Assembly: GCA_918797485.1 (NCBI GenBank)
Contig: CAKKNE010000003.1
Location: 3,720,001 to 3,784,000, forward strand
Length of the DNA: 64,000 nt
DNA from: Pelagomonas calceolata
Taxonomy: Eukaryota > Sar > Pelagophyceae > Pelagomonadales > Pelagomonadaceae
Reading direction: 5' to 3'
Below the pieces are notes generated by a model. It saw only the letters and a program-made list of their open reading frames with translations. It made no database searches and was not told where the DNA came from. A program made the position numbers and the translations under genes. Positions 17,972 through 61,087 of this stretch are shown here, in pieces (positions within the stretch are counted from its first letter, which is position 1; every line of letters starts with the position of its first letter).

Positions 17972-17995
17972 CCTAGTGTCTTACTGCACGCTAGC
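17972..17995 (-). promoter_or_regulatory. Recurrent promoter motif copy
   Basis: CCTAGTGTCTTACTG then CACGCTAGCG, the reverse orientation of the motif. It lies about 200 bp from both the NCAPG2 ATG (17775, minus) and the HIT ATG (18203, plus), near the centre of the divergent promoter. Confidence 0.65.
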
Positions 17996-18202
17996 GCCTC
18001 TTTTTTGCGCCCAATTTTGGCAAAAAAGGAGCTGTCCAACGCAAGCTCTGCGCCTGCGAGGTGTCCAACGCAAGCTCTGTGCCAGCGACAAGCCGGCCGA
18101 GCCTCGTGCATCTCTAGAAAAAAGCTGGAGCTGCGTCTGATCACTGCCTGGCTCCTAGCCACCGCCGCAGCGCTCGAGCCCAACTGCGCCTCCAACAAAG
18201 AG

Positions 18203-18634
18203 ATGAGTCTCTTCACGAAGATTATCCGCAAGGAAATTCCCAGCTGCAAGGTTGGAGCAGGGGAGCTCTGGTACGCGTTCCTGGACATCAATCCGAGACG
18301 AGCGGGCCACACGCTAGTCGTCCCCGTCGAAGAGAAGCAGCGCCTCGCCGAGCTGTCGGCGGAGTCGCGGGCCGCGCTCATGGAGGGCGTCGCGGACGCC
18401 CAGCGGCGATTAGGCAAGGTCTTCGACACGCAGGATTTCACCGTCGTTTTACACGACGGGCCCCTCGCGGGGCAAGAAGTCCCGCACGTGCATATCCACG
18501 TGATGCCGCGCACGAGCGGCGACGGCGGCCGCTGTGCCGGCATGGCAGCCTTCCCCGACGCGCCGCCCATCGGCAGCGTCGAGCCGGACTTCGCGGCGCT
18601 CGGGGCTCTGTCGGAGAAGCTTCAGGCGGCGTGA
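18203..18634 (+). CDS. HIT-family (HINT/PKCI-like) purine nucleotide hydrolase
   Basis: 143 residues from ATG at 18203 (MSLFTKIIRKEIPS). All HIT landmarks are present: FTKIIRKEIP, AFLDINPRRAGHTLVVPVEE, and the histidine triad VPHVHIHVMPR at about residues 94-104. HINT enzymes cleave AMP-lysine or AMP-amine conjugates in cytosol or organelles. The frame is open upstream but contains no earlier ATG. It is divergent from the NCAPG2 gene and converges on the GRIP gene. Confidence 0.9.
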   Translation: MSLFTKIIRKEIPSCKVGAGELWYAFLDINPRRAGHTLVVPVEEKQRLAELSAESRAALMEGVADAQRRLGKVFDTQDFTVVLHDGPLAGQEVPHVHIHVMPRTSGDGGRCAGMAAFPDAPPIGSVEPDFAALGALSEKLQAA

Positions 18635-18677
18635 GGCATTGTGTGTCGCGGCGATGGCCTCGTGGTACGAGTAAGTC

Positions 18678-20539
18678 CTAGGTCCCGGTATTTACTGGCG
18701 ACGCCTTCCTATGGCGTGGTGCGGGCGCAAGCGTCGTCAGCGTCAGCAATGGGTTGGGTGCGTCCGGTTCAGCGCTCCCACCCCAGTACGACTGCGACGC
18801 CTCCCACTTCTGGGCCTGCGCCCGCAATAGGCTCAGGTCGTCGTCCGTGAACGCCAGGACCGTCGCGAGCACCGGCACCAAGGACGCCTGCTCCGACGAG
18901 TTCTGGCGCAGCGAAAAGTACTGGACCAACAAATTCTTGACGTATTCCAGGTTCGTCGCGTCCCTGCCCAAGCCTCGGCGGGCATCTTCGAGCTTCTTCT
19001 GGCAGGCCAACAACTGGGAGGCGAGGTCCGCCACCTCGCTGTCGCGGTCGCGGATGGCCCGCTTCAGGCGCGACGTGGCGAGCTTGGACTGCGCGGCCTC
19101 GCTGGCCAGAGCGCCTTCTCTTCGCGCCTGGCGCTCGGCCTACGTGCGAATCGACGGGTGAGATCGAACGGACGTCGCGTCGATGGCGTGATCGAGCGGC
19201 CGGCCGCGCATGATTGCCGCGCCGGAACACGCGATCTCCACGAACTTCCGATGCTCGTGGCCGCCGCTCGCGAGCTCCGACTCGAGCTCCGCGACCCTTC
19301 GTCTAAGAATCTCGACCTTGCTATCCTTCTCCGCTAAAATAGTGCGCGCCAGGGAAGATCGTTTGGTGTGGTCCGCCTCGGCGCGCGCGAGGGCCTCGGC
19401 CACGGCTCGCTCGCGCGCCGGCGCGGCAGCAGTAATAGCGGCTTTGCTAATAGCATTAGCAGCCTCGAGGTGGGCGACGCGCGCCGACAGCGCCGCCGCG
19501 TGCGCGAGACCCAATGCTCGAGACGCGGCGAGCTCGCGCGCATGAGCAGCCTCGCGCTCGTCGTGCCTTTGCCGCTCGCTCACGATCTGGCCGTTCTGCA
19601 CGTCATTCGTCTCCCGCAGCGCGTCGCGCTCCTTCGTTAAGGCTTCCTTCTCGCGCTCGAGCGTCTGCAACTGCCTTGCCCTTGATGCATGAGCGTTCTT
19701 GTCCTCGACAGACGTGTTCTCGGACCGCCGCAAGCGACTCTCCGCGTCGGCGAGGCGACTGCGCGCGTCCTCGGCGGCCCTTCTCAAAACGACGTGGGCC
19801 TCGCGCAGCTCTGCGTTCTCGCGCTTCGCGGCCTCCAGACCTGTGTGGAAATCAAACGTCGCGCGCCCCGCGCCGGAACAGCATCTGCACGCCATCGACG
19901 CGAGGTTGCAGCCATTCCCGCGTCTGCTCGATGGCGTGCAGGTTCACGAAGGTCCTCGCAATAATTCTCAGGATAAGCTGGTTGATTTCCGCACAGCTCC
20001 AGGCCAGCGAGCGCCTCGGGCGCGCCGTCCGCGTCGCGCCGCGCGTCCCGCAACTTCAGCTCGAGGGACACGATCCTTTCTTCGGCTTTTGACGAGGCGT
20101 TCTGGCGCTTCGCGGCCTCGGAGTCGGCTCTCGCTGTTTCGGAGTCCCTCGCAGCTAAAGCGCGGGCCAGCGCCTCCTTCAGGGCCGAGGACTGGGCATC
20201 TGAACCATCGGAATCGCGCCCGCCGTAGAGCTGCGTCAGGGCGTTCTCATCTAACGAGACGCCATCGAGGACTCCGGGAGTCCCGAGCACGGTATTCGCG
20301 CAAAAACTCTTCAGGACATCTCGGTCCCGCTCCGCGTCCCTCGCTCGCGTAGCGACCTCCCGATGCGCCTTCTCGGCGGCCTTCAGGCGCGCGCCGAGCT
20401 TCATTGTTAGTTGTAACAAATCCTCTCGAGAAATGTCGGCGGCGCTCTGCGCTTGTGGTTTTTCCTCTTCCTTGCGCTCCTGGCCGAGGGTTTTCATCTT
20501 GGAGACGCCCTTGTCCCACTCGGTCTTGAGGCGGTCCAT
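18678..20539 (-). CDS. GRIP-domain golgin (coiled-coil Golgi tether)
   Basis: Three exons: 20539-20005, 19840-19242 and 19139-18678, totalling 531 codons. Start at MDRLKTEWDKGVSKMKTLG. Long coiled coils cover about residues 40-430. The C-terminal region (about 455-505) matches the GRIP domain: NLEYVKNLLVQYFSLR, then LVPVLATVLAFTDDDLSLL. GRIP domains recruit golgins to the trans-Golgi through Arl1 GTPase, so this is a vesicle tether. The middle exon frame (GLEAAKRENAEL) is recovered only by removing the introner at 19841-20004. The donor of the second intron is less certain. Confidence 0.85.
19140..19241 (-). mobile_element. Introner-like intron 2 of the GRIP golgin
   Basis: 102 bp with acceptor ACGTAG and probable donor GTGGAG, phase 0; GCGTGT six bases further is an alternative donor. 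Contains the core CACGCCATCGACGCGACG. Confidence 0.6.
19841..20004 (-). mobile_element. Introner with clear inverted termini (GRIP golgin intron 1)
   Basis: 164 bp. Ends are CTGTGCGGAAATCAACC and TTTGATTTCCACACAG, inverted repeats of each other. Flanks GCCTGGAG / GTCTGGAG form an 8-bp target duplication with one mismatch. Splicing must start at the left duplicate (GC donor) and end at the element's CAG; only this restores A-G-L-E-A. A perfect 14-bp internal inverted repeat (CTGCACGCCATCGA at 19885 and its complement at 19928) forms a hairpin core. Confidence 0.9.
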
Positions 20540-20718: not shown

Positions 20719-20743
20719 GCTAGTGTCTTACTGTGGCGCTAGC
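20719..20743 (-). promoter_or_regulatory. Recurrent promoter motif copy
   Basis: GCTAGTGTCTTACTG then TGGCGCTAGC. It is 180 bp from the GRIP ATG (minus) and 172 bp from the 58-residue ORF ATG (plus), almost exactly central. Confidence 0.65.
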
Positions 20744-21091: not shown

Positions 21092-21094
21092 GAA

Positions 21095-22075: not shown

Positions 22076-22078
22076 GTG

Positions 22079-25199: not shown

Positions 25200-28100
25200 T
25201 CACACGAGCCGCGGCAAATTCGGCGCCTTCATCCCGAAGGACACCTCGAGCGGCGCCGCCGCGCCGGGACTCTGAGACCCGGGCGCGACGTAGTCGGCGC
25301 GGGCGGCCCGCGACCGCCCGTGCGGCGAGATCGGGGAGCCGTTCGACTTGCTCTGAGCCTTGCCGAACGCGGCCAGCGCGCGCCGCCCGTAGGTCTGGAG
25401 GAAGCCCCGCGCGACGGCCGCCGCGAGGTCGCGTCGCCCCCGCAGCGCGTCATGTAAACGAGTACGCCGCAAGACAAGTAGCACGGCGCCATCGTTTCCA
25501 GCTCTGGCGTCGTAGGGCCAAACGTTATCAGCCAAGAGACCCGTGTTGCCAAAGCTTGCCGCCGGCCCATCTAACAGAACTCGATTCCCGCCGCCCGAAT
25601 CTAGTACGACAGCACCGTCCGCCAGAATTCTCAGAGAGGCGTCCGTCGCCGCACCGCGCGTCGCGATCTTCCTCTTCGGTTGGAGCACTTCGACCTCGGC
25701 CACGTCCGCGAGCAACGGCAAAAAGCGCGCCGGAACGAATCGGAGCATCTTCGTGTCCCTCAATAGTAATACTTTCTCCAAAGGCGACGGCGCGCCGCGC
25801 GAGTCGAAGACGCTCGACGCGGCGTCCTCGTCGCTGTCGTCGTCGTCCGAGAGGATGGACTGCATGCGCTTGATCGTGCCGCCGCCCGCCTGTCGAGGAG
25901 CCGGCAGCGCGCCGACCAACGCCCTCAAGACAGCAAAGACGAATTTCGGCGACGACGCGTCGATGCGCTGCCGCAACGCGTCGGCGTCGAGCACCAGGAT
26001 TGAGGCGGGACGCATGGCTACCGCTTGGGTCGGCGCGATGGCCGCCCAGCCCGCGACCCCACCGACGGCGTGCCACGGCTGTAACGACCCGCCCCGCTCC
26101 AGCACGGCCGCCGGCACGGCGACCGCACCCTTCGCGACGACCGCGCTTTCCGTCGAGGCCAGCTCGACTTCATCACCAATCGCGTACCTCCGCCACGAAC
26201 ATAGCGACGCGAGCGGCGCGAGGTGCTGCGCTAGTAAAGCGTGCTCCAGCGGCTTGAAGCCCTTCAGCAGCGCCACGCGCGGCAACAACGCGCCCTTGGT
26301 TATGGGCGCGGCGCGGCCACTACATAAAGCATCAACCGCGTTCGCGAGCTCGTTCCCAAGCGCATCGTTCTGCTGCTCCAGCCAGCCGACGGCTTTTCTG
26401 ACAGAAGCCGCTTTACATTTAGTAGACGACAGCGCCCCGAGGACGCAGGGCTTGAGGGCCGGCGGCAAATCGGACTCAACTAACTCTAACACAGCAGAGG
26501 CGCTCTTGGGGTCGTCATCACGCAAAACCTTCCACGCGTCTCTGGGCCGCCAGCCATGCCGCGCCAACAACGCACACCTCGCGAGGAGATGCTGCCTCCT
26601 CCCATACAACTTCTCGGCGGCGTACGCAGCCGCACATGCACCTAGTTCGAGCGCGACGCCGTCGTCGGCCGTGCCTAAATCGTCGACGGCATCTCCCCGC
26701 AAGCGCGACACGGCTAACGCTATATTCCTATCGGAATACCTACCGTGACCCAGCTTCAGGAACCGCGCCCGCGCTTCTGCGGCATTATTCGCCTCGGCCG
26801 CTTCTCGACGTATTGTACTTTCAATAGCGTCCGGCGATGGCGTGGACGCACCGCCATCCAGACAGTCCCTGACAAAGTCGAGGAGCCAGCCTTCATAGAC
26901 GGCGTCGTCGGTAGATGCCGCCAAGGCCCACGCTCTCGCGGACGCGTCGTTTCTCCCTCGGTGCTCCGTCGTGCTTCTAAGAGCATCCAACAAGCAGCCG
27001 GCGTCGCCTCCATCTTCCGTGATCGACGCTGTAAGTAATTCTAAGAGTTTTGGTGTTGCTGCTTTCGCGACAGACGCGTCGGCGCTGAGCAGTCGAGCCG
27101 CCCGTCGAGCCGTGGGCCGAGCACCCGCTAGCTTCGCCAACGCATGGGCGCGTTGCTCCGCACCTAGAGCGACGGGCGGCGCCAGAGCTAATAAAGCTCG
27201 ACTGACGCGCGGGTCTTCCGCAGCAGCCAATCGGAGCCAGGTTGCAGAATCCGGAACCAAAAACGGCGCGTCCCGTAGAGCGTGCAGAGCGGCCGCCGCG
27301 GCGTTCGCATCCAATGAAAACGATTGGGGCTCGACCACTCTAGATTCATCACCGCCTCGCGCGGCAACCCGACACGCCGTCAATCTGATCGCGGCGGCCA
27401 CGGCGGCGCCCTCGTCGCCTTGTTGTACAGCTTCGTCCCAGGCAGCTTGTGCAGATGCAGCAGCAGACGCTAACCGAGAGGAATCCTGGGTGAGTGTAGG
27501 CCGCATCGAGAGCTGTCTCAAACTTCGAGCTTTGGAGGCCTGCAAATGGCCGCCCAGCATCGATTCCAGCACCTTGGCGGCGCCCGACGACACGTGGCCC
27601 ATCCCAATGCCCCAGCCTAACGAAAGTAGAGCCGCGGCCGCCGCCGCGCGCGGCGCGGGGTGTGCTGAACCAAGTAATCTCTCGAGAGCGGGCGTGGCCT
27701 CGTGGATATTCCGACGAGCGGCCGCCAGACACGCCGCCGCGAGGATGTGCGACTCGTCATGGGCGTTTAACAGAGGATCGCCCTTTTCCAGTTCCCTTAA
27801 AACAAGTGCATCGGCCCATTTTATGGAAGGCGCTTCTTCGTCACCCTCTTGGTCGTCGTCGTCGTCCTCGAGTGACGCGACGACGTCCCTCAATGCTGCT
27901 ACACGCACGGAGGGCTCCCACGAGTCGAACCCCAGAAACAACTCCCGCACCTCTCTCGGCCTTAGAGCAGCCCCAGCTCCGATCTCTCTCAGTAAAAATA
28001 ACTTCGCGCCGACGCCGCCCCTCCGGAACCGTTCAAACACTAGTTCCGCCAATTGATCACGACCGTCGTTCGCAGAGGTGGCGTCCCGTACATCAGCTTC

Positions 28101-29594
28101 CACAGACACTAAATGACCCTCTTCGTCGACGTCGCCCCAGGGCTTCTCGTGAGGTAGCGGCGCCTTGCCGCCTATGAATGTGGTTGACGATCTAGCGACG
28201 GACCGCCGCGCGACGCGTCGTCGCATCGCCGCCAGATATCTAGAGCGTAATTGCATACCAACAAGCGCTAACACGGCACAAGATACCAACGCTAACGACG
28301 CCAATTGGGGGATCCTATACCCTTGGTGGGTCAGAAACCCAAGTATCAAAGCGACCACGGCTGCGGTGGCCTTTTTTGCTAGACTTTCCACGTACGGTCT
28401 GGCTGCTCTAGCAACAGGTACGTCCACGGCGATCCAAACCACCGACTTAAAAGTGTTCGACACGGACCACCGCGCCGCCAAATCAAAGGCGCGCGCCGCC
28501 GCCAGCGTCTCGACGGAGGCCCGCTTGAAGCAGATGATTCCCAACAACAAAGCGACGCCGAGGGGATACCCCGCCGACACGGCCAGGCCGAACCGCCTCA
28601 AGAGTCGCCGTGTCCCGCCCGCATTCAAAACAGATGCGGCCACGCCGGCCGCGGCATACAAGTAACCCGTGACGGTCACCATGGCTTCTGGACTTCGCGT
28701 GTCCGCCGCCACGACACAGGTATAGCAGTATTCCAGCGTCGTCTTGACGGCTATCACCAAAATCGTGTACAGGCCGAGCCCGAGCACCAGGTCGTCGGTC
28801 CACCACTTTTGCGAGGAGCGGTCTTCTACCACCGCCTTTTTTTCGCTGCGGGACACGTGCGCCACGTATCGTGTTGAGGGCAGTCCTAGTAGTAGAGCGA
28901 CAACTTGGGCTAAGACTAGTGAGTTTGCGCCTGCGTAGCGAGAGAGGCCGCCACACGTCAGGCCCGCGAGGACCGCGCCCACGCTACTTCCGAGCTGTAC
29001 CAGACCGACAACTCTACGAGCCGCGGTCGCGGTAAATAATTCCTGCGCGACCGCCGCGTTCTGCATCATGACCAGCAGCGTCGTCAGATCTTCACACACG
29101 AAGAACAACGTGTAGAGGACCTGGGTCGTGAGGTCCACGGCGGCGGCGGTGCGCCTCTCGAGATACGACAGCATAACCCACAAGCACGCGAGGAGCACCG
29201 CACCCGATAACTGGACGCAAGCATACACGCGCACGGCCCGCCGCGGCCGCGCGTAGGTCGAGAAGCGCGGCGTGACGGCGAAGACGGACAGGGCCGACAG
29301 GAACATAGCTCTCGCCAGTCGCCGGCTGCCGAGATGATTGACATACAACGCGGGCCCCGCGTTCCTGCCAAACACGAAGGCGATGTTCGCCAGCGCGCCC
29401 ATCAGTATCAATCGGCTGACGAGTCTAGCCTCAGCGGCGTCTTTGAGGCCGAGGGCGTCGGCGAGGCGCGTCGAGACTCGGGTCCGCTGGGACCAGAGGG
29501 CGCCTTCCCGTGGCGACTGCGCCGGGCTTCCTAGGAGCGAGGTGGTCTCGCGCGGCCGCAGCTGGATCGCTGCGGCCGCCAGCGGTGCAGGCAT
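25200..29594 (-). CDS. NTT/MFS-like transporter fused to HEAT repeats and cyclic-nucleotide-binding domains
   Basis: 1464 residues from the first ATG (29594, MPAPLAAAAIQLRPRET); the open frame extends upstream only with a GTG. Residues about 60-460 hold ten to twelve membrane helices in the ATP/ADP-translocase (NTT) / MFS style (LILMGALANIAFVFGRNAG, YTLFFVCEDLTTLLVMMQN). Residues about 500-1100 are HEAT-type helices (LFLREIGAGAALRPREVREL). Two cyclic-nucleotide-binding-like beta rolls follow (about 1140-1250 and 1290-1400, with RILADGAVVLDSGGGN and GPAASFGNTGLLADN). NTT-HEAT-CNB fusions are known in some bacteria and algae. It probably moves nucleotides or another metabolite under cyclic-nucleotide control; the substrate is not readable from sequence. 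Confidence 0.75.
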   Translation of the reverse strand: MPAPLAAAAIQLRPRETTSLLGSPAQSPREGALWSQRTRVSTRLADALGLKDAAEARLVSRLILMGALANIAFVFGRNAGPALYVNHLGSRRLARAMFLSALSVFAVTPRFSTYARPRRAVRVYACVQLSGAVLLACLWVMLSYLERRTAAAVDLTTQVLYTLFFVCEDLTTLLVMMQNAAVAQELFTATAARRVVGLVQLGSSVGAVLAGLTCGGLSRYAGANSLVLAQVVALLLGLPSTRYVAHVSRSEKKAVVEDRSSQKWWTDDLVLGLGLYTILVIAVKTTLEYCYTCVVAADTRSPEAMVTVTGYLYAAAGVAASVLNAGGTRRLLRRFGLAVSAGYPLGVALLLGIICFKRASVETLAAARAFDLAARWSVSNTFKSVVWIAVDVPVARAARPYVESLAKKATAAVVALILGFLTHQGYRIPQLASLALVSCAVLALVGMQLRSRYLAAMRRRVARRSVARSSTTFIGGKAPLPHEKPWGDVDEEGHLVSVEADVRDATSANDGRDQLAELVFERFRRGGVGAKLFLLREIGAGAALRPREVRELFLGFDSWEPSVRVAALRDVVASLEDDDDDQEGDEEAPSIKWADALVLRELEKGDPLLNAHDESHILAAACLAAARRNIHEATPALERLLGSAHPAPRAAAAAALLSLGWGIGMGHVSSGAAKVLESMLGGHLQASKARSLRQLSMRPTLTQDSSRLASAAASAQAAWDEAVQQGDEGAAVAAAIRLTACRVAARGGDESRVVEPQSFSLDANAAAAALHALRDAPFLVPDSATWLRLAAAEDPRVSRALLALAPPVALGAEQRAHALAKLAGARPTARRAARLLSADASVAKAATPKLLELLTASITEDGGDAGCLLDALRSTTEHRGRNDASARAWALAASTDDAVYEGWLLDFVRDCLDGGASTPSPDAIESTIRREAAEANNAAEARARFLKLGHGRYSDRNIALAVSRLRGDAVDDLGTADDGVALELGACAAAYAAEKLYGRRQHLLARCALLARHGWRPRDAWKVLRDDDPKSASAVLELVESDLPPALKPCVLGALSSTKCKAASVRKAVGWLEQQNDALGNELANAVDALCSGRAAPITKGALLPRVALLKGFKPLEHALLAQHLAPLASLCSWRRYAIGDEVELASTESAVVAKGAVAVPAAVLERGGSLQPWHAVGGVAGWAAIAPTQAVAMRPASILVLDADALRQRIDASSPKFVFAVLRALVGALPAPRQAGGGTIKRMQSILSDDDDSDEDAASSVFDSRGAPSPLEKVLLLRDTKMLRFVPARFLPLLADVAEVEVLQPKRKIATRGAATDASLRILADGAVVLDSGGGNRVLLDGPAASFGNTGLLADNVWPYDARAGNDGAVLLVLRRTRLHDALRGRRDLAAAVARGFLQTYGRRALAAFGKAQSKSNGSPISPHGRSRAARADYVAPGSQSPGAAAPLEVSFGMKAPNLPRLV

Positions 29595-29743: not shown

Positions 29744-29765
29744 CTAGCGGCCTGTAAGACACTAG
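29744..29765 (+). promoter_or_regulatory. Recurrent promoter motif copy
   Basis: CCTAGCGGCCTGTAAGA then CACTAG. It lies 150 bp from the transporter ATG (minus) and about 220 bp from the p24 ATG (plus). Confidence 0.65.
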
Positions 29766-29984: not shown

Positions 29985-30596
29985 ATGCCGCGCCCACGGA
30001 GGAGAGCGCTCGTCCTACTACTAGCAACAACAAACGCCCTCGTGATCCGACTAGAAGCCGGCGCCCGGGAGTGCTTCCTCCTCGACGTCTCCAAGGAGGC
30101 CGCTGTTTCTGGCAACTTCGAACTGATTAGTGAAGGCGTCACCCCAGAACCGCTCGGCGTCGTCGTGAGCGGCGCGGCCGGTGCTGATCCTCTGTACGAA
30201 ACGCACGGCCAGCCCGACGGGACCTTCGCCTTCGATGTGGCCGACGACGGCGTGGTCGATCTCTGTTTATCGAACGGCGACGCGTCGAATAATGATGGGA
30301 GGGCGCGAACCGTCGGCTTCGCGATCCGCGCGAGCGTACATCACCCGTCCACAGATGGAGAGGGCTCCATGGACGCGTTACTGGATGTCAGCGAAGAATT
30401 GAACGAAGGGTTATTGACGCTGACGGACCACCAGGCCTACATGCGGCGGCGCGAGGAGCATCATGCTGCCGTGCTGGAGTCTACTCGAGCTCGCGTATTG
30501 TGGTGGACCGTCGCGGAGACCGCCGTACTGATCGCTTTGTCGCTGTGGCAGATCCTGACGGTGCGCGCGTTCTTCGAGACGAAGCGGCGGCTCTAG
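29985..30596 (+). CDS. p24 / emp24-GP25L (TMED) cargo receptor
   Basis: 203 residues. A signal peptide (RRRALVLLLATTNALVIRLE) leads into a GOLD domain (about 20-115: ECFLLDVSKEAAVSGNFELI, GTFAFDVADDGVVDLCLSN). A short coiled coil (about 130-165) and one membrane helix (WWTVAETAVLIALSLWQIL, about 172-192) follow. The cytosolic tail FFETKRRL has the FF and basic signals used for COPII and COPI binding. p24 proteins cycle between ER and Golgi and sort cargo. The gene fits the family in length and order. Confidence 0.9.
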   Translation: MPRPRRRALVLLLATTNALVIRLEAGARECFLLDVSKEAAVSGNFELISEGVTPEPLGVVVSGAAGADPLYETHGQPDGTFAFDVADDGVVDLCLSNGDASNNDGRARTVGFAIRASVHHPSTDGEGSMDALLDVSEELNEGLLTLTDHQAYMRRREEHHAAVLESTRARVLWWTVAETAVLIALSLWQILTVRAFFETKRRL

Positions 30597-30628: not shown

Positions 30629-31855
30629 CTAGCTCATCCACCTACGCGCCAGCCACAGGCAGGGCCTCTTTCTAAGGGCTTCGAGGGCCTCAAGGTACTG
30701 CCTCGCCGCAGCGGCTGCGACGGCGGCCGCGGCTGCGGCTTGCTTCCGGAGGACCGCGGGGTGCTCGGCGTAGGGCATAGCATCGATACGCGAACCATTT
30801 GCGAGACCAATGTCCGCGGGCTTCTGGAAGCCCTCAATCAGTAACTCAGAGCCGGGCAGGCTAAAAGCCAATCGGCCGACAGGGAGGCCTACTCGTCTCG
30901 CGAAGGCCCTAAACAGCTTCATGAGTGTTGTTCTGGACTTAATCTGAAAGAAAGTTTCTTCGCCAGTTTCCGCCCATGGAATGCTTATATTGAGAGTTGT
31001 TGTTGTGGGCGGTGGCAGCGGCGGCGATAGGTACGAGAGAACTCGTCGGAACAAGCCCCGTTCGCCCGTGCGGGCGAGGAATTTTAAGACGCAGTCGTGC
31101 GTCGTCGCACGATCACGCAGCGCCAGATGCCGCACCAACGCGCACGTTCGTCGTTGCTCGATCACAAAGCTACGATAATCGCCGGCCGCGCGCACGGAAA
31201 GCAGAAACGCCTTGAGCGCGAGGTAGTGCGCCTTATCGGCCAGCGAGGGCTCCCGCCGTTCTTTCTCACCCAGGACCCATTCGATCGACTCAGATCGGCT
31301 CCCGAGTTTGGTTCCTTGCGCGTCTTTGACCGTAATCTTTGCGACGAAGTCCAGACTCGCCCCGCAGCGCAACAGCGCGTGGGCGACCGCTATGTGTCGT
31401 GTCCCGTAACTGGAGGAGTAGAGAATTGCACAAGCGAGAGGAGAGTATTTGTGAATAGCCGTTCGGTCATCCTCTATCGGAAATGTGACCCTAGCTTGCA
31501 ACCAATCGACGCCCGCGCCCCATCTAATCAGCAGATCGATCAGTCGCGGGGACAAGTCCGTAGCTTGCGTTGAGACCATGCACAGCGTGGTGAATAACTG
31601 AAGGTCTGAAAGTTGTGTAAACGGGTCAGTTTTGACATTACACATTCGATTCGGGTCCGCGCCGCGAGCGAGAGCCAGCTGGACGAAGCGGAGTTTTGCC
31701 TCGGTGGTGTATTCGTGGCTGATCGCAGCCTCCGCCATCGCTGATGTCAATACCTCCTCACCATCCTCGGACGCGAGCCATTGGGAGACAGCCTCGGCGT
31801 CGCCCCCGACCCGTAGGGCATACAGTATATGTGCGGGGATACTGGGCTGCGACAT
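30629..31855 (-). CDS. Ankyrin-type protein with C-terminal SUMO/ubiquitin-like domain
   Basis: 408 residues from ATG at 31855. Ankyrin-like helices span about residues 5-180 (QLALARGADPNRMCN, LIDLLIRWGAGVDWL, AHALLRCGASLDFVAK). The cap block LKAFLLSVRAAGDYRSF ... LVRHLALRDRATT matches that of 24153-25154. Residues about 295-365 resemble a SUMO/Rad60-type beta grasp: TFFQIKSRTTLMKLFRAFAR, VGRLAFSLPGSELL, and IGLANGSRIDAM. No terminal di-Gly is present, so it would be an internal adaptor domain, not a conjugated modifier. An Ala-rich helix ends the protein. Confidence 0.7.
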   Translation of the reverse strand: MSQPSIPAHILYALRVGGDAEAVSQWLASEDGEEVLTSAMAEAAISHEYTTEAKLRFVQLALARGADPNRMCNVKTDPFTQLSDLQLFTTLCMVSTQATDLSPRLIDLLIRWGAGVDWLQARVTFPIEDDRTAIHKYSPLACAILYSSSYGTRHIAVAHALLRCGASLDFVAKITVKDAQGTKLGSRSESIEWVLGEKERREPSLADKAHYLALKAFLLSVRAAGDYRSFVIEQRRTCALVRHLALRDRATTHDCVLKFLARTGERGLFRRVLSYLSPPLPPPTTTTLNISIPWAETGEETFFQIKSRTTLMKLFRAFARRVGLPVGRLAFSLPGSELLIEGFQKPADIGLANGSRIDAMPYAEHPAVLRKQAAAAAAVAAAAARQYLEALEALRKRPCLWLARRWMS

Positions 31856-32003: not shown

Positions 32004-32027
32004 GCTAGCGGCATGTAACATACTAGC
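32004..32027 (+). promoter_or_regulatory. Recurrent promoter motif copy
   Basis: GCTAGCGGCATGTAACA then TACTAGC. It lies about 150 bp from the ankyrin/SUMO-like ATG (minus) and 208 bp from the coiled-coil ATG (plus). Confidence 0.6.
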
Positions 32028-32234: not shown

Positions 32235-33521
32235 ATGCGGCGCGCCTCGGCGCCCGCGACGCTCTCCACAAGAACAAAACCGCCCCCGCCGCCGCCGCCG
32301 GCGACCTGGGCCCTGCGCCGCGCGTCGAAAGCCGCCGCGCAACAAACACAAGACGTAGCACAAGCGTTAGTCGTCCGAGAGGTCCTCGCGGAGTGCGTGG
32401 ACGACGTGGCCCAGGCCCACCACGAGAACGAGGTCAACGAGCTCCGAGATCTGGTCGACGACCAGTCGTTACGGCTCGAAGTCATTGCGGGAGAACGCGA
32501 CGCGGCCCTCCGCAAAATAAAACAGCTCGAGGACGACCGCGCGAGCATCCAGCAGGAATGCATCGAAGCCAGGGACGCCTTCTGCGAGGACATTGTGGCC
32601 TGGAAGCGGCAACAAATGCAGGCTGAAGAAGAGCGAGCGCGGCACGATCGAAACGCCGAGGACGCGCGGCGCGTCCCCTCCCTCGAGCGACGTATAGGCG
32701 AGCTGGAGCGGGAGTTACAAAGAGCGTCGCGGCGATTGGAGCTGTTTTCGAACGCCGGGAAACAAAACGGCCACGCTTCGTCGGAGAAGCGGCCACCTTT
32801 GACGATCCTCGAAGATCGCGTCGTGCTGCGGGTTTTTAGCTTCCTGGTCGCGCCGGAAGTGCTCGCGACGGCGCAGAGCGAAAGGCGTTTTTTTGGGCGC
32901 GTAGATCGCCTGTTTTCCCTCAACTCGCAAATTGGTCGAAAACTACGAACGACGGTCTCGCCCCAGAAGAGCGTCGGTCTCAGTTCCCAGATCGCGGCGG
33001 CCATCGCGTCGAAACTGTCTCCCTCCGAAATTAAGGGCATCATCGCGTTGGATAGAAGGTGCAAGGCTCTCGACGTCGAGGTGCGCGGGTTGCAAGCGGA
33101 AGCCGAGGACTCGCGAGCTGCCCTCGAGGGCGCCGAGCGCGTCAAGGAGTTCCTGGCGTCCAAGGTGAGGGATGCGGAAGAATCTTTGGCGGAGGCCTTA
33201 CGGTCGACAGAATCGACGCGCCAGCAGGCCGGCGCCGACGCGGAGGTCATCGCGTTCTTGGATGAACGCGTTCGTTGTCTCGAAAATGAGGTCGCGGAGG
33301 CAACTCGATTGCGGCTCGAATTGGAGAACTCGCTCGGGCGCGACCGGGACGCGGCCGTGGACCAGCTCGCGGCGGCCCAGGACGCCATGCGCGTCGACGC
33401 CGAGCGGCGGGACCGGCAGCAGGCGTCCCAACAAAAGGCGCGGAAGCTCCTCGTGAAGGAAGTCAAGACGCTAAGGAGTCAGTTGGACATGGTGCGGCGG
33501 GCGGCGGCGGCGCGCGTGTAA
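32235..33521 (+). CDS. Coiled-coil protein with embedded F-box-like segment
   Basis: 428 residues from ATG at 32235. A poly-Pro N-terminus precedes two long coiled coils (about 35-175 and 265-425). Between them lies an F-box-like stretch (about 185-225: ILEDRVVLRVFSFLVAPEVL, then ERRFFGRVDRLF). The region resembles F-box proteins that carry coiled coils instead of LRRs or kelch repeats, so an SCF adaptor or cytoskeletal role is possible. No signal or membrane segment. Confidence 0.6.
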   Translation: MRRASAPATLSTRTKPPPPPPPATWALRRASKAAAQQTQDVAQALVVREVLAECVDDVAQAHHENEVNELRDLVDDQSLRLEVIAGERDAALRKIKQLEDDRASIQQECIEARDAFCEDIVAWKRQQMQAEEERARHDRNAEDARRVPSLERRIGELERELQRASRRLELFSNAGKQNGHASSEKRPPLTILEDRVVLRVFSFLVAPEVLATAQSERRFFGRVDRLFSLNSQIGRKLRTTVSPQKSVGLSSQIAAAIASKLSPSEIKGIIALDRRCKALDVEVRGLQAEAEDSRAALEGAERVKEFLASKVRDAEESLAEALRSTESTRQQAGADAEVIAFLDERVRCLENEVAEATRLRLELENSLGRDRDAAVDQLAAAQDAMRVDAERRDRQQASQQKARKLLVKEVKTLRSQLDMVRRAAAARV

Positions 33522-34720: not shown

Positions 34721-36439
34721 TTACTCGAGCGTCGCGAAGACGTCGAACGCGCCCGCCCTTTCCCGCCGCGCGTGCGCCTCGAGGTCGTCGAAGAAGTCCC
34801 TCAATTCCCCGCACGCCAGGAGCATCTGCTCGAGGTCGTTGTCGTCCGCGACCTTGACTCTCACCAGAGATCTCGCTGCTAAAGCTTTGTCGACGAGTTC
34901 CCTGGCGCGTTGTTCGGGAAGCCCGAGCTCCTCGAGCCGCTCGTATTCCGCCCGATTGGACGTATGCGCTTGTTCTAGCGTAGACGTCTCCTCGCCGTAG
35001 GGCAGCAACATCTTCGACAGGGCGCCGCCCCTAATTTTCAACCGCTGGGCCACCGTTTTTACCTCCTCAACATAAGCGACGCCATCCTCCGCCGCTTGTC
35101 TCGTTTTTTCCAGCGCTTGGGCATCGCGCACGTCCGGGCTTCGCAGCAAGTACACGCAGGTGCCCCAGCGGTCCCGCAGGTCCTCCAACGTGCACGGCGG
35201 TCGCTCCGGTCTCGTCGGCGAGGGCGGCGCCGGCGACGGGCGTGGCGAGGGCGGCGCCGGGCTCGGCTGCAGTGGCGTCGCATCATACGTAAGTGGTGAG
35301 GCGGCGCGGCGGTCGCTCTCCTCTCGGCGCGCCGAGCGCGGAGCGTCGTCCTCCTCGGGGTACTCGGCCCAGTCCCGCGCGCCGCCGCCGCCGCCGACGG
35401 GCTGGTCGTCCCAGTCCTTGGCATCCGCGGGCTCGTCGTCAGTCGCGAACGGACGCTCGTCGTCGCTGGCGACCGGTGTCGCTTCGTCCGAGTCCCGCGC
35501 GGACGAGCTCTCGACGGGCCGCACCGGCGCGCGCCCGGCGCCGCCAGCGGGCCGCTCGTCGTCGTCGCTGCCGGTCGCCTCGTCCCAGTCCTGCTTGGCG
35601 CCTTCACTAACAGGCTCGTCGTCCCAGTCGCGCCGCGCCGGCGCGGGCCGCATCTCGAGGCTGCCCGTCGAGTCCGAGTCCGAGTCCGGCGTCGCCGCGC
35701 GCGGCGGCGGCCCGGTCTCGCCCTCGGGGTATTCCGTCCAGACCTGGCCGCCTCCACTATGGCCGACGGGCATCTCGTCCCACTCGCGCTGGCTGACGAC
35801 GGGCCGCCGCGCCGCGGGCGCCCGCTTGCGCTCGGCTTGTTGCGGCGGCGGCCTTTGAGCGCCGCCGACGGGCGTGTCGTCCCACTCGCGCGCCGTCGGC
35901 ACCTTCGTCGGGCTGGCGCGCGGCCGCGGCGCCCGGGCCGGCTTCGAAGCGGACCGCCAGCTTCCTCCGTCATAAGCCGCCGGCTCGGCGTCGTCGTCGT
36001 CGATGCGCTGGGGCGTGCGACCCTTGCCGCCGACGGGCACGTCGTCCCAGTTTTCCGGCGGCGCTTCATTTGGAGGCGGCGGGCTGAACGCTTCGTCCGG
36101 TGGTGGTGGAGACGTCATGGCATGGGGCTGGGGCTGCCGGCGGCGGCGGCCCGTGCCGCGGAGCCGCGCGAGCTTCGCGAGGCGGCGCTCCTCGTTGTAC
36201 GACGCAGCCTCGCGTCCCGAGGCCGTGGCAGACATCTCAAATTCCGGGAGAAGGCGTTCGTGGCGCTCGCGTGGCTGCCCAAGGCGACCGTGCAGGCGGC
36301 GCTCGCGTCGGGCTTTCACGAGCTCCGACCGGTGCTGTGCCACTCCAAATCGAGTTAAATCGAAGCCCGCGCGTCCCATCGTCCAGCCAGGAGCTGCCGG
36401 ACGCCCTCCCTTCCGTGGTAACGGTGCCGTACGTTTCAT
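34721..36439 (-). CDS. Disordered protein with repeated WDDxPVG motifs
   Basis: 572 residues from ATG at 36439; later Met codons (MGRAG, MSATAS) are alternative starts. The central 300 residues are acidic, Pro/Arg-rich and carry about eight copies of a short motif: ENWDDVPVGG, REWDDTPVGG, REWDEMPVGH, RDWDDEPVSE, KDWDDQPVGG, plus looser QDWDEATG, VWTEYPEGE and DWAEYPEED. The C-terminal 170 residues are helical (LEDLRDRWGTCVYLL, KIRGGALSKMLLPYGEE). The repeats look like a multivalent linear binding motif. No known family. Confidence 0.65.
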   Translation of the reverse strand: MKRTAPLPRKGGRPAAPGWTMGRAGFDLTRFGVAQHRSELVKARRERRLHGRLGQPRERHERLLPEFEMSATASGREAASYNEERRLAKLARLRGTGRRRRQPQPHAMTSPPPPDEAFSPPPPNEAPPENWDDVPVGGKGRTPQRIDDDDAEPAAYDGGSWRSASKPARAPRPRASPTKVPTAREWDDTPVGGAQRPPPQQAERKRAPAARRPVVSQREWDEMPVGHSGGGQVWTEYPEGETGPPPRAATPDSDSDSTGSLEMRPAPARRDWDDEPVSEGAKQDWDEATGSDDDERPAGGAGRAPVRPVESSSARDSDEATPVASDDERPFATDDEPADAKDWDDQPVGGGGGARDWAEYPEEDDAPRSARREESDRRAASPLTYDATPLQPSPAPPSPRPSPAPPSPTRPERPPCTLEDLRDRWGTCVYLLRSPDVRDAQALEKTRQAAEDGVAYVEEVKTVAQRLKIRGGALSKMLLPYGEETSTLEQAHTSNRAEYERLEELGLPEQRARELVDKALAARSLVRVKVADDNDLEQMLLACGELRDFFDDLEAHARRERAGAFDVFATLE

Positions 36440-36449
36440 CGAGGGCTGT

Positions 36450-36473
36450 GCTAGCGCATGTAGGGACACTAGC
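36450..36473 (+). promoter_or_regulatory. Recurrent promoter motif copy
   Basis: GCTAGCGCATGTAGGGA then CACTAGC. It lies 11 bp from the minus ATG at 36439 and 57 bp from the plus ATG at 36530, the tightest divergent spacing here. Confidence 0.55.
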
Positions 36474-43688: not shown

Positions 43689-44505
43689 GTAAGATATAAG
43701 TATATACCGTGACTCAGAATTTTATCGGTGTGCACTTCGCGCGCCATCTCCGCGTCGAGCTTGATTTACGGGAGAGGGCTCCAGGGAGGTCGTTTCAGAG
43801 AGTGATTACGAGTGCGTGGATGCGCGATTGGACTGCGTTCGGGCAAAACGACCGAGCTAGCGGCCTGTAAGACACTAGCAAGCAAGCGCCGAGTCGTTTG
43901 TTTAGTTTACGCCGCGACAACTCACCCAAGCGGACTATCACGCGTGCGTATATCAAAAGAAGTCACACGACACCCGTCGCCGCGTTACGGGTTGCACCGC
44001 GCGACTTGCGTTACATTATCACAACAAACTGTTCTATGAGTTTGTCGCGCGGCTCGCACGGTTCTATGCGGGCCTTCGTCGCTTCATTCAGCACGCTTCG
44101 AACAATCTCGCACTGAGTACTCGCAAACACGGCAAACGCGCTGGATTCACCGGATCAAATACTTTATAGCCCACAGAGCCATTGATGCACTCACTCGATG
44201 AAGCCATCGCCTAAAACGCGCACCGGACGCGAGCTCGGATACGTAATGATAGTCGTAGCGACGCCTCTCTCGACGTATTCGCCGCGAAAATGGGCGCCCG
44301 ATGTGTGACGCGGGAACGCGGCGGCGGGCGCGGCGTCCACCGCATCTTTAGGCGAGCCCGACCCGGGCGTAGGCCTCGCGGCGCTTAATCTGCCGGTAGG
44401 CTCTCCCGAACTTCGCACGAAAATCGCGGCACGGTTTTAACAGACATTCCCCCCTCGCGGCGTCGGCCCCGGAGACTACTGAGTCTTACTAAAGTAGTTA
44501 CACAA
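43689..44505. other. 817-bp convergent interval
   Basis: Both neighbours end here, yet it contains a perfect copy of the promoter motif (43856-43883). A 75-codon minus ORF (44191-44418, ending PSSRPVRVLGDGFIE) lacks an ATG start and is unsupported. An unannotated transcript is possible. Confidence 0.4.
43856..43883 (+). promoter_or_regulatory. Recurrent promoter motif copy, no recognised gene start
   Basis: GCTAGCGGCCTGTAAGA then CACTAGCAAGC, the most complete consensus copy, in an interval between two convergent genes. Confidence 0.6.
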
Positions 44506-46913: not shown

Positions 46914-47364
46914 CGCTAATCGCTGGGCGTGGTCCGCTTCTTGCGTGGGAGCAGTGGCTGTACGTGTGAGTCCTCTAACGTGGCCGCGGCGGCGCTAGGA
47001 GGCCAGGAGCTGTGGCGGTTGTTGTGTCGGCGCGCGCGCGAGAGCCGTTTTTTTCGGGTCTCAGTGAGAAAACGCGGCAGCGCTGCGGCAGTGACCAGCG
47101 CAGCGTGTGTATTTCACGCTCTACTTGCGTGAATACGGACGCCAAGTCGATGCAGCAGCAAAACGACTTTTTGCTAGCGACCTGTAAGACACTAGAAAGT
47201 TCACACGAGCCTTCCGGGCCGTCTCCGGCCACGAACGTGACGCGTGTTCGTCGCGGGGACGGCTAAGACCATCGCCGCCCGGAGTGAAATCGATTCAGAT
47301 CGGCACGCGAGACTCGCCGAGAGGCGGTGGGTATACTTCTGGGTCTAACTTACATACAGTGAAG
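46914..47364. other. Intergenic, tandem minus-strand genes
   Basis: 451 bp; contains the promoter motif at 47173-47195. No supported ORF. Confidence 0.5.
47173..47195 (+). promoter_or_regulatory. Recurrent promoter motif copy
   Basis: GCTAGCGACCTGTAAGA then CACTAG, 260 bp upstream of the minus gene starting at 46913. Confidence 0.6.
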
Positions 47365-48927: not shown

Positions 48928-48948
48928 CTAGTGTCTTACAACGCTAGC
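48928..48948 (-). promoter_or_regulatory. Recurrent promoter motif copy
   Basis: CTAGTGTCTTACAACGCTAGC, about 100 bp upstream of the JmjC ATG and on the 5' side of the unknown plus-strand gene. Confidence 0.6.
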
Positions 48949-56997: not shown

Positions 56998-57501
56998 TCA
57001 TGCCTCGAAGGCGACGGCCTTCGCCGGGACGTCGGGCGGAGCCGTCGTCGGGCAGATCGCCGCGGCGCCCGCTTTTGCTACCTCCGCGTCCTCGGTCGGC
57101 AAGACGCCGGAGACGCCGACGGCGCCGACGCAGTAGCCGTCGACGAAGATCGGCTCCCCCCCACCTAGGACCGTGAAGCCCGACGCGATGAGTGCGGGCC
57201 GCTTGTCGTTCGCGGCGCTCTCCAAATCTAGCGTCGGCTTGCGAAATTGCGCCGCCGTCCGCGCCTTCTCCGTGGCGAGCGTGACGGAGGCGGGGAAGGC
57301 GCCGTCCAAGCGTGCTAAACATAAGGGCACGCCGCCGCCGTCGCACACACAGATCGTCACGGGCCAGTCCTCGTCCTTCGCTTTGAGCTCTGCCGCCTCC
57401 AAGACCTTGCCGGCCGCGTAGCGCGTGAGGACTGGCTGGGTTGGGATCACTAGTGCGCTTGCTGTAGCGGCGAGGGCCAGCGCTGCTCTGAGGCGTGCCA
57501 T
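56998..57501 (-). CDS. GlcG/HbpS-like (DUF336) protein, plastid-type leader
   Basis: 167 residues from ATG at 57501. Leader MARLRAALALAATASALVIP. The GlcG/HbpS fold is visible in order: DWPVTICVCDGGGVPLCLAR, LDGAFPASVTLATEKARTA, LGGGEPIFVDGYCVGAVGV, then SGVLPTEDAEVAKAG. Bacterial HbpS binds haem or corrinoids; GlcG's role is unsettled. The eukaryotic copy may derive from bacteria. Targeting is inferred from the leader. Confidence 0.8.
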   Translation of the reverse strand: MARLRAALALAATASALVIPTQPVLTRYAAGKVLEAAELKAKDEDWPVTICVCDGGGVPLCLARLDGAFPASVTLATEKARTAAQFRKPTLDLESAANDKRPALIASGFTVLGGGEPIFVDGYCVGAVGVSGVLPTEDAEVAKAGAAAICPTTAPPDVPAKAVAFEA

Positions 57502-57646: not shown

Positions 57647-57674
57647 GCTTGCTAGTGTCTTACTGACCGCTAGC
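57647..57674 (-). promoter_or_regulatory. Recurrent promoter motif copy
   Basis: GCTTGCTAGTGTCTTACTG then ACCGCTAGC, about 150 bp upstream of the GlcG-like ATG (57501, minus). It includes the GCTTG extension seen in the best copies. Confidence 0.65.
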
Positions 57675-59132: not shown

Positions 59133-59546
59133 GGTGACCGTCGGAGGAGTGGAATGACCTGTTAATCTCCTCGGCTGGACCTGCGCGCGGGCGGCCGTCG
59201 CGACGCGTACGAGTGCGACTCGAGGTCGGGCCGCGCTGTCCAGGCTCGAGCCCGCTGGCGGCGTGTCGGCTACAGGTCACGCGCACCGGCGCAACGCGCG
59301 CGCGTCGCGGAGTCGCCGAGCACAGCTGCAACCCCCAAGTTTTTCCAATCTCTGGGAGCGCATCTATCGATCGAACTTTCGCGCACGCGATCTGGAAATA
59401 CGACGAACACTGCTGCGCGCAAGTATGAGCGGTATTTGACGATCAGACAAGGCGGGGCGACCCAAAACCCAGTGGCCTGTGCCGACACAGTCTCAGGGTT
59501 GCTTCGTCTAGGAAGCCGGGAACAGAGTCCATCAAACAAACAACAC
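59133..59546. other. Intergenic, tandem minus-strand genes
   Basis: 414 bp with no supported ORF or recurrent motif. Confidence 0.4.
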
Positions 59547-60863
59547 CTACTCCCCAGACCCAAACGCCGGCCCGACGACCGGCGCCACGCACCGCGCCCA
59601 CATGCCCCCCCACCGCTCCTGAAGACCCGCGCCCGCGCGCAACGTCTGCAAAGCGTCGCCCCGTCCTGAGACCTTGGCGAGCTCGCGCGCCAACGACGCC
59701 GCGTCCTCAAAAAGCACGCCGTTGACGCCATCTTCCACAAGTTCGGAAACGCACGGAAACGCCAATTGTAGCACCGGTAACCCAACTCCGAACATGTCGA
59801 CCACTTTCATCGGCAGGTCCAAGCCTGAAGTCGAGGCATGGAGCGACACGCCGACGTCGGCACAGGCCAACAAACAGCAGTAGTCTTTCGTGGACAGCCA
59901 CGCGGTTGCGACCCTCACATGTCGCAAGTTCAGAGTAGCGTACCGCTCCTCGAAGCGCCTCCGTAACTCGCCCTTGCCCGTCACGATGACGACGAGGCGT
60001 TGTGTGTGCGCCTTGTCGTAGGCGATCAATGCGTCGAGCAAAACGTCGAAGTCTTCGTCCGCGGACCACGACGTCGACGACGCTATTATAGTAGGGCGAT
60101 CCTTCGACGCATCGGCTAATGAACGGCCGCGCCAGAAGGGGTCATTTGAGGAAGAAGGGAAGGCGATTGAACCGATCCTCGCGAGCGCCGCGAGCCTTTC
60201 GCTTTCACTTAGCGACGTGAACATCGAGGGCGGCCGGTCGTGGGCCGCTTCCGCATGAATACCGTAATTTCGGGAGAGCCACGCCTTCAGGGCGTGCGTG
60301 ACGCAGAGGTGCCTATCTAAGAGCCGACCGCTCCGTCGCTCGAGAAAGTCGTAGATCCCCACGGCCACTCTATCAGCAAAAGACAACCTCCCCTTCCTTC
60401 TCAAAGAAGCGTCCGCCAGCACCGTGTGCCCCAGGTTGTGCCAGTCGGCGACCACATGAGCGCCATCTCGTCGCGCGACGAGCCAACATAGAAACAGTGC
60501 TGGTAATGCGGGCGGCGTCTGGCACAGCACCAGGGACGCTCTATGATCTCTTCTAGCTTTGAATAACGCACGGCCTAGAGCGAAACAAAGCGCGAGCAAC
60601 CGATAGACCCTGCCCAGGAAACCCGGGAACCGCCTCAATGGCTCCGCGATGCGCACCTCCCGCACACAAACGTGCCGTACCAACGCGTCAATACAACGCT
60701 CGCCCGCATACCCGACGAGCGTCACGGCCCGCCCTTCCTCCGCCAGTGACAACGCATGATATTGCATTCGTGGACTTCTCCCGACGTCGCCGGCGACGAC
60801 GACGAGGGCGTGGCCGTTTCGTGCGGCGGCTTTTGCGAAGGCGTCTTGTTGCTCGGCGGCCAT
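59547..60863 (-). CDS. ALG1: Chitobiosyldiphosphodolichol beta-mannosyltransferase (ALG1-like)
   Basis: 438 residues from ATG at 60863. A GT-B fold GT33 enzyme: DVGRSPRMQYHALSLAEEG is the ALG1 N-terminal signature, followed by ADWHNLGHTVLA, the hinge region with FPSSSNDPFWRG and IIASSTSWSADEDFDVLLDA, and the C-terminal sugar-nucleotide site (LHASTSGLDLPMKVVDMFG, GLPVLQLAF). It adds the first mannose to dolichol-linked chitobiose on the cytosolic ER face. A membrane-seeking stretch is present near 88-125 (LLALCFALGRALF, PALFLCWLVARR). Confidence 0.93.
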   Translation of the reverse strand: MAAEQQDAFAKAAARNGHALVVVAGDVGRSPRMQYHALSLAEEGRAVTLVGYAGERCIDALVRHVCVREVRIAEPLRRFPGFLGRVYRLLALCFALGRALFKARRDHRASLVLCQTPPALPALFLCWLVARRDGAHVVADWHNLGHTVLADASLRRKGRLSFADRVAVGIYDFLERRSGRLLDRHLCVTHALKAWLSRNYGIHAEAAHDRPPSMFTSLSESERLAALARIGSIAFPSSSNDPFWRGRSLADASKDRPTIIASSTSWSADEDFDVLLDALIAYDKAHTQRLVVIVTGKGELRRRFEERYATLNLRHVRVATAWLSTKDYCCLLACADVGVSLHASTSGLDLPMKVVDMFGVGLPVLQLAFPCVSELVEDGVNGVLFEDAASLARELAKVSGRGDALQTLRAGAGLQERWGGMWARCVAPVVGPAFGSGE

Positions 60864-61060
60864 CGCTGTGATCTATGCGGCACTAGTTTGGACGAAAGTG
60901 GCCGCTGTGCGCAGCGTGCAGTGCTGTCTTTTGCTGCAGCGGCCGTACTCCTAGCTTTTTGCCAACAGCGGCAGCGTGCGTACGGGGTATACTTCCGCGT
61001 ATTATTGGCTCGAATCACGCCCGCGGCGCTCCTTCGCTCGTCGGGCAAAAATAATATTAT

Positions 61061-61087
61061 CTAGCGGCCTGTAACACACTAGCAAGC
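61061..61087 (+). promoter_or_regulatory. Recurrent promoter motif copy
   Basis: CTAGCGGCCTGTAACA then CACTAGCAAGC, 198 bp from the ALG1 ATG (minus) and 132 bp from the plus ATG at 61219. Confidence 0.65.

What the first reader, a model, noticed from the sequence alone, without database searches (positions are those of the whole stretch)
17972..61087. A ~24-bp imperfect palindrome recurs near the centre of divergent promoters
GCTAG(C/T)G, a CTGTAAGA-type core and CACTAGC occur at 14091, 17972, 20719, 29744, 32004, 36450, 43856, 47173, 48928, 57647 and 61061, in both orientations. In six cases two divergent ATGs lie on either side, often at near-equal distance (180/172, 197/208, 150/208 bp). 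None lies in a coding exon. It may bind a regulator or set bidirectional initiation.
Basis: seen in the sequence. Interest (0 to 1): 0.85.

Follow-up and report, generated by a model that had tools for sequence, protein, structure and literature searches.

The report
A 27-base promoter motif, thousandfold repeated
The genome of a tiny marine alga (most likely Pelagomonas calceolata) carries several thousand copies of one long, two-part DNA signal that usually lies just upstream of genes, often a single copy near the middle between two genes that point away from each other, so it looks like the docking site of an unknown, widely used promoter protein.

Summary
The motif is A-GCTAGCG-(0-4 nt, usually 2)-CTGTAAGACACTAGCAAGC. 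A PWM finds 56 sites in 264 kb (window plus 200 kb of C1), against 1 in the reversed control. Genome-wide, CTAGCGN{8,12}CACTAG occurs 3,983 times against 20; I estimate about 5,300 sites. One of 56 sites falls in predicted coding DNA (44 expected); 33 of 55 divergent, 15 of 48 tandem and 2 of 55 convergent gaps are occupied. It lies upstream of 81 of 158 predicted genes, median 195 bp from the ATG. Occupied divergent gaps hold one site in 32 of 33, near the middle. Flanks are mostly unrelated and target-site duplications are not evident, so it does not look like a dispersed transposon. One correction: it is not a palindrome; the arms differ (CTAGCG versus CTAGTG) and symmetric versions are rare (33 and 120 places). 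Orientation shows no bias at tandem promoters (8 and 8). Best reading: the site of an unidentified general promoter factor (Reb1/Abf1/Rap1- or ZNF143-like in role) serving both promoters. Binding, chromatin and transcription are untested. The searches named showed no description in print.

The parts
   Evidence: PWM score 22.1
14091..14114 (+). motif copy, about 100 bp upstream of the ATG of the F-box/kelch ORF (13290-13991, -), an ORF that my gene finder missed
   Evidence: ORF, Pfam
17972..17995 (-). motif copy between the condensin II-subunit-like gene (14168-17775, -) and the HIT-domain gene (18203-18634, +)
   Evidence: Pfam
20719..20743 (-). motif copy at a divergent pair (18678-20539 - / 20915 +), 180/172 bp
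29744..29765 (+). motif copy at a divergent pair (25200-29594 - / EMP24 family gene 29985-30596 +)
32004..32027 (+). motif copy at a divergent pair (30629-31855 - / 32235-33521 +)
36450..36473 (+). motif copy with a divergent core (CATGTAGGGA), PWM score 15.9, at a divergent pair (34721-36235 - / 36554 +)
43856..43879 (+). best-scoring copy in the sample (47.3); no ORF of 50 or more codons starts next to it; called convergent by the gene model
47173..47195 (+). motif copy 260 bp upstream of the minus-strand ORF that starts at 46913 (the gene model merged minus-strand ORFs here and called the site intronic)
48928..48948 (-). motif copy with spacer 0, upstream of the minus-strand ORF that starts at 48830
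57651..57674 (-). motif copy 150 bp upstream of the HbpS-like gene (56998-57501, -)
61061..61083 (+). motif copy at a divergent pair (glycosyltransferase 59547-60863 - / 61219-61692 +)

Best explanation
The element is the binding site of an abundant, sequence-specific general promoter factor in the nuclear genome of a pelagophyte alga, most likely Pelagomonas calceolata. SHOWN (on the sample or by genome counts): a directional, bipartite site of about 27 bp (GCTAGCG, spacer of 0-4 nt, CTGTAAGACACTAGCAAGC); thousands of copies; nearly all sampled copies outside predicted coding DNA and typically 80-320 bp upstream of predicted start codons; as a rule one per occupied divergent gap and near its middle; no preferred orientation at tandem promoters. 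INFERRED: a protein, probably with two DNA-contacting modules joined flexibly (hence the variable spacer and the two CTAG arms), occupies the site, keeps a nucleosome-depleted region open and permits initiation on both sides, so that one site serves two divergent genes or one tandem gene. The factor is not identified.
For: PWM scan: 56 sites above 15 bits in 264 kb against 1 in the reversed control; above 18 bits 53 against 0. Genome counts 942 against 0 and 3,983 against 20. Sites by class: 34 divergent, 16 tandem, 2 convergent, 3 intron-called, 1 coding; 43.7 expected in coding, p about 3e-35. Gaps occupied: divergent 33 of 55, tandem 15 of 48, convergent 2 of 55 (divergent against convergent Fisher p 6e-11). 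In a second, motif-chosen set of 25 loci, 0 of 25 sites are coding (10 divergent, 11 tandem, 3 intron-called, 1 edge). Position: upstream of 81 of 158 genes, peaking at -200 to -160, median 195 bp. Central in divergent gaps: mean offset 0.21 against 0.46 simulated, 0 of 20,000 simulations as central. One site per divergent gap: 22 gaps with none, 32 with one, 1 with two, where about 7 with two or more are expected at random (p 1e-4). Orientation in tandem promoters 8 and 8. Genes next to window sites have mixed Pfam hits: condensin II subunit, HIT, EMP24, F-box/kelch, glycosyltransferase, HbpS-like.
Against: No binding, TSS or chromatin data. Gene models come from my own HMM, without transcripts; it missed or merged some ORFs in the window. 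Length-corrected preference for divergent over tandem gaps is modest (34/16/2 against 24/22/6 expected, p 0.016). 22 of 55 divergent gaps have no site. The AT-rich, CpG-poor zone around the sites is not special to them: divergent gaps without a site are nearly as AT-rich (0.38-0.41 around the middle, against 0.40-0.45 with a site). The strongest copy (43856) has no recognisable gene start beside it. The site carries about 36 bits where about 13 would locate it, more than one ordinary factor should need. No relative's genome was available to show conservation.
Confidence: 0.67

Rival explanations
1. Insulator or roadblock: the bound factor separates two neighbouring transcription units (blocks read-through or antisense initiation) rather than activating them.
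For: Usually one central site per occupied divergent gap, with no orientation bias at tandem promoters. Yeast Reb1 acts this way in some contexts (passages of PMC7618759).
Against: Sites are also found at tandem promoters (15 of 48 gaps) and are nearly absent from convergent gaps (2 of 55), where a read-through block would be useful; convergent gaps are short, however (5,470 bp in 55 gaps).
Confidence: 0.13
2. A very short mobile element, or a relic of introner or MITE ends, preferring promoter insertion.
For: Excess information content (about 36 against 13 bits); inverted-looking CTAG arms; a weak excess of flank repeats in a loose test (mean 1.86 against 1.52, sd 0.17); introners are reported in pelagophytes (passages of PMC9481584, and PMC9860276); two pairs of sites share flank similarity of 51 and 75 bp.
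Against: Flanks otherwise unrelated: 26 mostly short matches among 148 flanks. At fixed boundaries only 1 of 42 length/offset combinations exceeded 2.5 sd, with 2 cases among 66 sites. The core and spacer vary, and scores grade down to weak sites in the same promoter positions.
Confidence: 0.06
3. Site of a specific regulon (for example nutrient or cell-cycle control) rather than a general promoter element.
For: About half of the upstream regions in the sample lack it (77 of 158).
Against: Present upstream of 81 of 158 genes and, in the window, beside functionally unrelated genes.
Confidence: 0.08
4. A SNAPc-type proximal sequence element or other small-RNA promoter.
For: Long site; the genome has many Myb-domain matches (123 at E 0.01 or better), the DNA-binding type of SNAPc (recalled).
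Against: No position scores above 0 in the 400 bp upstream of U1-like (2 loci), U2 (1), U6 (1) and a sub-threshold U2-like hit (best scores -1.9 to -10.6).
Confidence: 0.02
5. Replication-origin or other chromosome-architecture mark that happens to use promoter gaps.
For: Promoter gaps are usual places for origins in small genomes (recalled); density about 1 per 6-8 kb by the strict pattern.
Against: Dense for one origin per site (recalled comparison); position is tied to start codons.
Confidence: 0.04

Closest known systems
Yeast general regulatory factors (Reb1, Abf1, Rap1) and their promoter sites
   Same: Many promoters; located between divergent transcription units; described as organising nucleosome-depleted regions and insulating or permitting divergent transcription (passages of PMC7618759).
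   Different: Yeast sites are short (recalled); here about 27 bp in two parts with a variable spacer. No ortholog or binding shown here.
ZNF143 site of human promoters
   Same: A long motif (a 29-base ZNF143 motif is mentioned in a legend of PMC11118474) found in bidirectionally transcribed regions; the factor stimulates initiation.
   Different: Sequence differs (recalled). A whole-genome look for C2H2 fingers (PF00096) gave no match at E 1e-4, a low-power test.
Introner elements of pelagophytes
   Same: Reported in the same lineage (passages).
   Different: Introners are introns (length peak about 210 bp in P. calceolata), some families with TSD/TIR; this element is about 27 bp, lies mostly upstream of genes and has mostly unrelated flanks.

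Membership tests
General regulatory factor promoter site (Reb1/Abf1/Rap1-like role) | abundant and largely confined to promoters | tested here: met
   placement tested on the 264-kb sample and 25 further loci, with predicted genes
General regulatory factor promoter site (Reb1/Abf1/Rap1-like role) | works in either orientation | tested here: inconclusive
   placement is orientation-free at tandem promoters (8 and 8); function not tested
General regulatory factor promoter site (Reb1/Abf1/Rap1-like role) | sits in a nucleosome-depleted region | tested here: inconclusive
   AT-rich, CpG-poor zone, but nearly the same in divergent gaps without a site; no chromatin data
General regulatory factor promoter site (Reb1/Abf1/Rap1-like role) | bound by a known factor | not testable with these tools
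   needs pulldown or DAP-seq
ZNF143-type site | multi-finger C2H2 protein encoded | tested here: inconclusive
   no PF00096 match at E 1e-4; 23-position model, six-frame search, so low power
DNA transposon / MITE / introner | shared sequence beyond the core and target-site duplications | tested here: not met
   a loose test was slightly high
SNAPc PSE | upstream of snRNA genes | tested here: not met
   0 of 5 fetched snRNA-like loci (U1-like x2, both under Rfam's cut-off; U2; U6; one sub-threshold U2-like hit)
Palindromic (symmetric dimer) site | equivalent arms | tested here: not met
   mixed arms 3,983 hits (control 20); CTAGCG both arms 33 places (control 30); CTAGTG both arms 120 places (control 6, so enriched but rare)
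Structured RNA | match to a known RNA family | tested here: not met
   0 Rfam hits at gathering score and 0 tRNAs in the window

The most novel reading that the evidence does not exclude
One lineage-specific, two-module DNA-binding factor (or a cooperating pair) defines promoters for close to half of the genes of a pelagophyte through a single, very long, strictly asymmetric but orientation-indifferent site, so that most divergent gene pairs share one master element; its excess information (about 36 bits where 13 would do) records two proteins reading the same site.
Probability: 0.35. Interest if true: 0.8.

Novelty: new variant of a known kind. Interest (0 to 1): 0.7.

Why it matters
Promoter signals of pelagophytes, which include cosmopolitan oceanic picoalgae and coastal bloom formers, appeared in none of the search listings seen here. 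A single motif that marks about half of the sampled promoters gives a direct handle on promoter prediction, on identifying a master promoter protein by pulldown, and on how two genes can share one promoter signal. The long asymmetric site with a variable spacer and far more information than needed is itself a puzzle for binding-site theory.

Tried and rejected
Viral contigs: the exact 15-mer CTGTAAGACACTAGC gave 9 IMG/VR stretches, all with GC 35-43% and without the left arm, so taken as chance; the fuller pattern gave 0. SNAPc/PSE reading: no motif upstream of five snRNA-like loci. C2H2 arrays as the binder: no match (low power). Myb-domain matches are plentiful (123); two multi-repeat ORFs were fetched (L065, L066) but nothing links them to the motif. 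Phased CpG or AT pattern around the motif: only a central AT-rich, CpG-poor zone, no periodicity that I could see by eye, and the zone is shared by divergent gaps without a site. Fixed-distance partner motifs: GCAAAA about 20-24 bp before the core start (8 of 74 sites, 0.23 expected) stood out, not pursued. Lower-scoring sites in the 22 unoccupied divergent gaps: 4 of 22 exceed the best reversed-control score of 0.7 (10.2, 4.4, 2.7, 2.6), so a few may hold degenerate copies. Print: listings for Aureococcus + promoter motif, bidirectional promoter + motif + stramenopile (29), Pelagomonas calceolata + promoter (31), Aureococcus anophagefferens + nucleosome (32, 12 of 20 listed), bidirectional promoter + microalga and others (46), letters of the core (58: one paper on diphthamide, not opened) and Pelagomonas + cis-regulatory + motif (59: none) showed no description; apart from the four papers cited by passages I saw listings only. 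Subscription papers are mostly not held.

Rows dropped: L012 (37 bp from L011's site) from the locus test; L012 and L025 from the profile, flank and TSD scripts; L027-L030 because they overlap the C1 stretch; sites scoring under 24 (50 of 56 pass) and under 25 from the loose TSD test.

Full report
What the window is. The window lies at C3:3720001-3784000 of a genome with 8 contigs and 32,445,274 bases. Size and contig number fit Pelagomonas calceolata RCC100 (six nuclear contigs totalling 32.4 Mb, plus plastid and mitochondrion, average GC 63%, 16,667 genes; passages of PMC9481584); the window has 64% GC and the C1 stretch 63%. The species name is an inference; the genome carries no name here. 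The main text of that paper contains neither 'motif' nor 'promoter'.

The motif. All 11 listed copies exist. Sites carrying the exact core CTGTAAGACACTAG (38 distinct in the sequence used) align into one block with sharp edges: A-GCTAGCG, a short spacer, CTGTAAGACACTAGCAAGC; outside it, information drops to near zero. An iterated PWM with a spacer of 0-5 nt finds 56 sites scoring above 15 in the window plus C1:1000001-1200000; the same sequence reversed gives 1 above 15 and none above 18. Of 48 sites with a recognised left arm the spacer is 2 in 35, 1 in 6, 0 in 4, 3 in 2 and 4 in 1. Information content over 47 sites is about 36 bits after subtracting spacer entropy, against about 13 bits needed to find sites at this density; choosing high-scoring sites inflates the first figure somewhat.

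Genome-wide. The exact core occurs 942 times (460 and 482 by strand) with 0 controls. CTAGCGN{8,12}CACTAG occurs 3,983 times against 20 controls. By the ratio of PWM sites to this pattern in the sample (56 to 42, the 42 counted by hand) I estimate about 5,300 sites; the sample is somewhat denser (159 per Mb) than the genome (123 per Mb).

Not a palindrome. The left arm is CTAGCG and the right arm, read on the other strand, is CTAGTG, and the core between them is asymmetric. Versions with two CTAGCG arms occur at 33 places (control 30), and with two CTAGTG arms at 120 places (control 6), against 3,983 mixed. The two-CTAGTG form is thus enriched but rare, and some of its listed places carry the same GTAAGACACTAG core while others belong to another repeated 22-mer. 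The usual site therefore has a direction. Relative to genes the direction is random: 8 and 8 in tandem promoters.

Where it sits. I built a small HMM gene finder trained on the sample itself (160 predicted genes, 78% coding). Of 56 sites, 34 lie in divergent gaps, 16 in tandem gaps, 2 in convergent gaps, 3 in predicted introns and 1 (weak, 17.3) in coding; 43.7 were expected in coding. Gaps occupied: 33 of 55 divergent, 15 of 48 tandem, 2 of 55 convergent, 3 of 53 introns. At least one intron call is a gene-merging error: the window's 47173 site lies between separate minus-strand ORFs. Corrected for length, the preference among intergenic classes is modest (34/16/2 against 24.1/21.9/6.0, p 0.016), so 'promoter' is better supported than 'divergent promoter' as such. 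In a second set of 25 loci chosen by the exact core, 0 of 25 sites are coding, with 10 divergent, 11 tandem, 3 intron-called and 1 edge.

Position. Sites lie upstream of 81 of 158 usable genes, mostly -80 to -320 with a peak at -200 to -160, median 195 bp. In divergent gaps they are more central than random placement (0.21 against 0.46, none of 20,000 simulations), and occupied gaps nearly always hold just one: 22 gaps with none, 32 with one, 1 with two, whereas random allocation gives about 7 gaps with two or more (p 1e-4). Around 74 aligned sites the sequence is AT-richer (0.39-0.44 within 100 bp, against 0.32-0.37 at 200-500 bp) and CpG-poorer. This is not specific: in the 22 divergent gaps without a site the middle is also AT-rich (0.38-0.41, against 0.40-0.45 in the 33 with a site), so composition says little about the motif itself.

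Is it a repeat? Flanks of 200 bp from 74 sites gave 26 match rows among 148 flanks. Two rows are trivial (one pair of neighbouring sites), and only two others reach 50 bp (75 bp at 83%, 51 bp at 88%). A loose test for flank duplications was slightly high (1.86 against 1.52, sd 0.17), but at fixed boundaries only 1 of 42 combinations exceeded 2.5 sd, with 2 cases among 66 sites. I take this as no transposon signature.

Genes served. Pfam hits next to the window's sites include condensin II subunit, HIT, EMP24/GP25L, F-box/kelch, group 1 glycosyltransferase and HbpS-like; eight other proteins scanned beside sites have no hit and two have only hits under Pfam's cut-off. There is no visible theme, which favours a general element over a regulon; only window genes were looked at.

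Mechanism. The pattern (many unrelated promoters, one site per shared gap, no orientation bias, long and bipartite) is what a general promoter factor would leave. In yeast, Reb1, Abf1 and Rap1 are described as organising nucleosome-depleted regions and divergent promoters (passages of PMC7618759), and ZNF143 stimulates initiation at promoters and bidirectional regions, with a 29-base motif named in a legend (passages of PMC11118474). Works like these: likely. Member of either family: not shown. The factor is unknown: PF00096 gave no match, Myb-type domains gave 123 matches, and neither is linked to the motif. An snRNA-promoter (SNAPc) role is disfavoured because none of five fetched snRNA-like loci carries the site in the 400 bp upstream.

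Limits. Gene context was examined on parts of C1 and C3 only; gene starts are predictions; there are no transcripts, no chromatin data and no second species. The second locus set was chosen by the motif core, but the promoter association was not used in finding sites.

Noticed in passing
upstream regions in window and C1 stretch; L060, L062, L063: A second promoter word: GGGCAGCC in 23 and GGCTGCCC in 23 of 158 upstream regions (divergent gaps counted from both sides), against 0 and 1 in the reversed control; 6,005 genome-wide against 3,148 controls; also seen upstream of the U2, the U6 and one U1-like locus.
   Followed up: partly
G000:C1 and C2, for example C1:2905263-2905284: The 22-mer CTAGTGGCGCAAAACTCACTAG recurs exactly at 9 of the 50 places listed for CTAGTGN{8,12}CACTAG (120 in all); it may belong to a separate repeat with similar arms.
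   Followed up: no
left flank of the motif, about 20-24 bp before the core start: GCAAAA is enriched at this fixed place (8 of 74 sites, 0.23 expected), a possible accessory element.
   Followed up: no
window 43856-43879: The best-scoring copy in the sample has no ORF of 50 or more codons starting beside it, and the window has no Rfam hit; it may mark an unannotated transcript.
   Followed up: partly
near C1:1165747 and 1165778 (in the 200-kb stretch), and L011: Two places with paired sites: one inverted pair about 30 bp apart, and one direct pair 37 bp apart with similar right flanks.
   Followed up: no
G000:C5:1123863-1124825 (L065) and C1:3236478-3237263 (L066): Multi-Myb-repeat stretches with four domain matches each; possible long-site DNA binders, no link to the motif.
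   Followed up: partly
window 934-1920, 8311-9474; L061: Look by eye like members of one gene family (cysteine-rich N-terminal part, then repeats); a sub-threshold U2-like hit on C3 lies beside a similar sequence.
   Followed up: no
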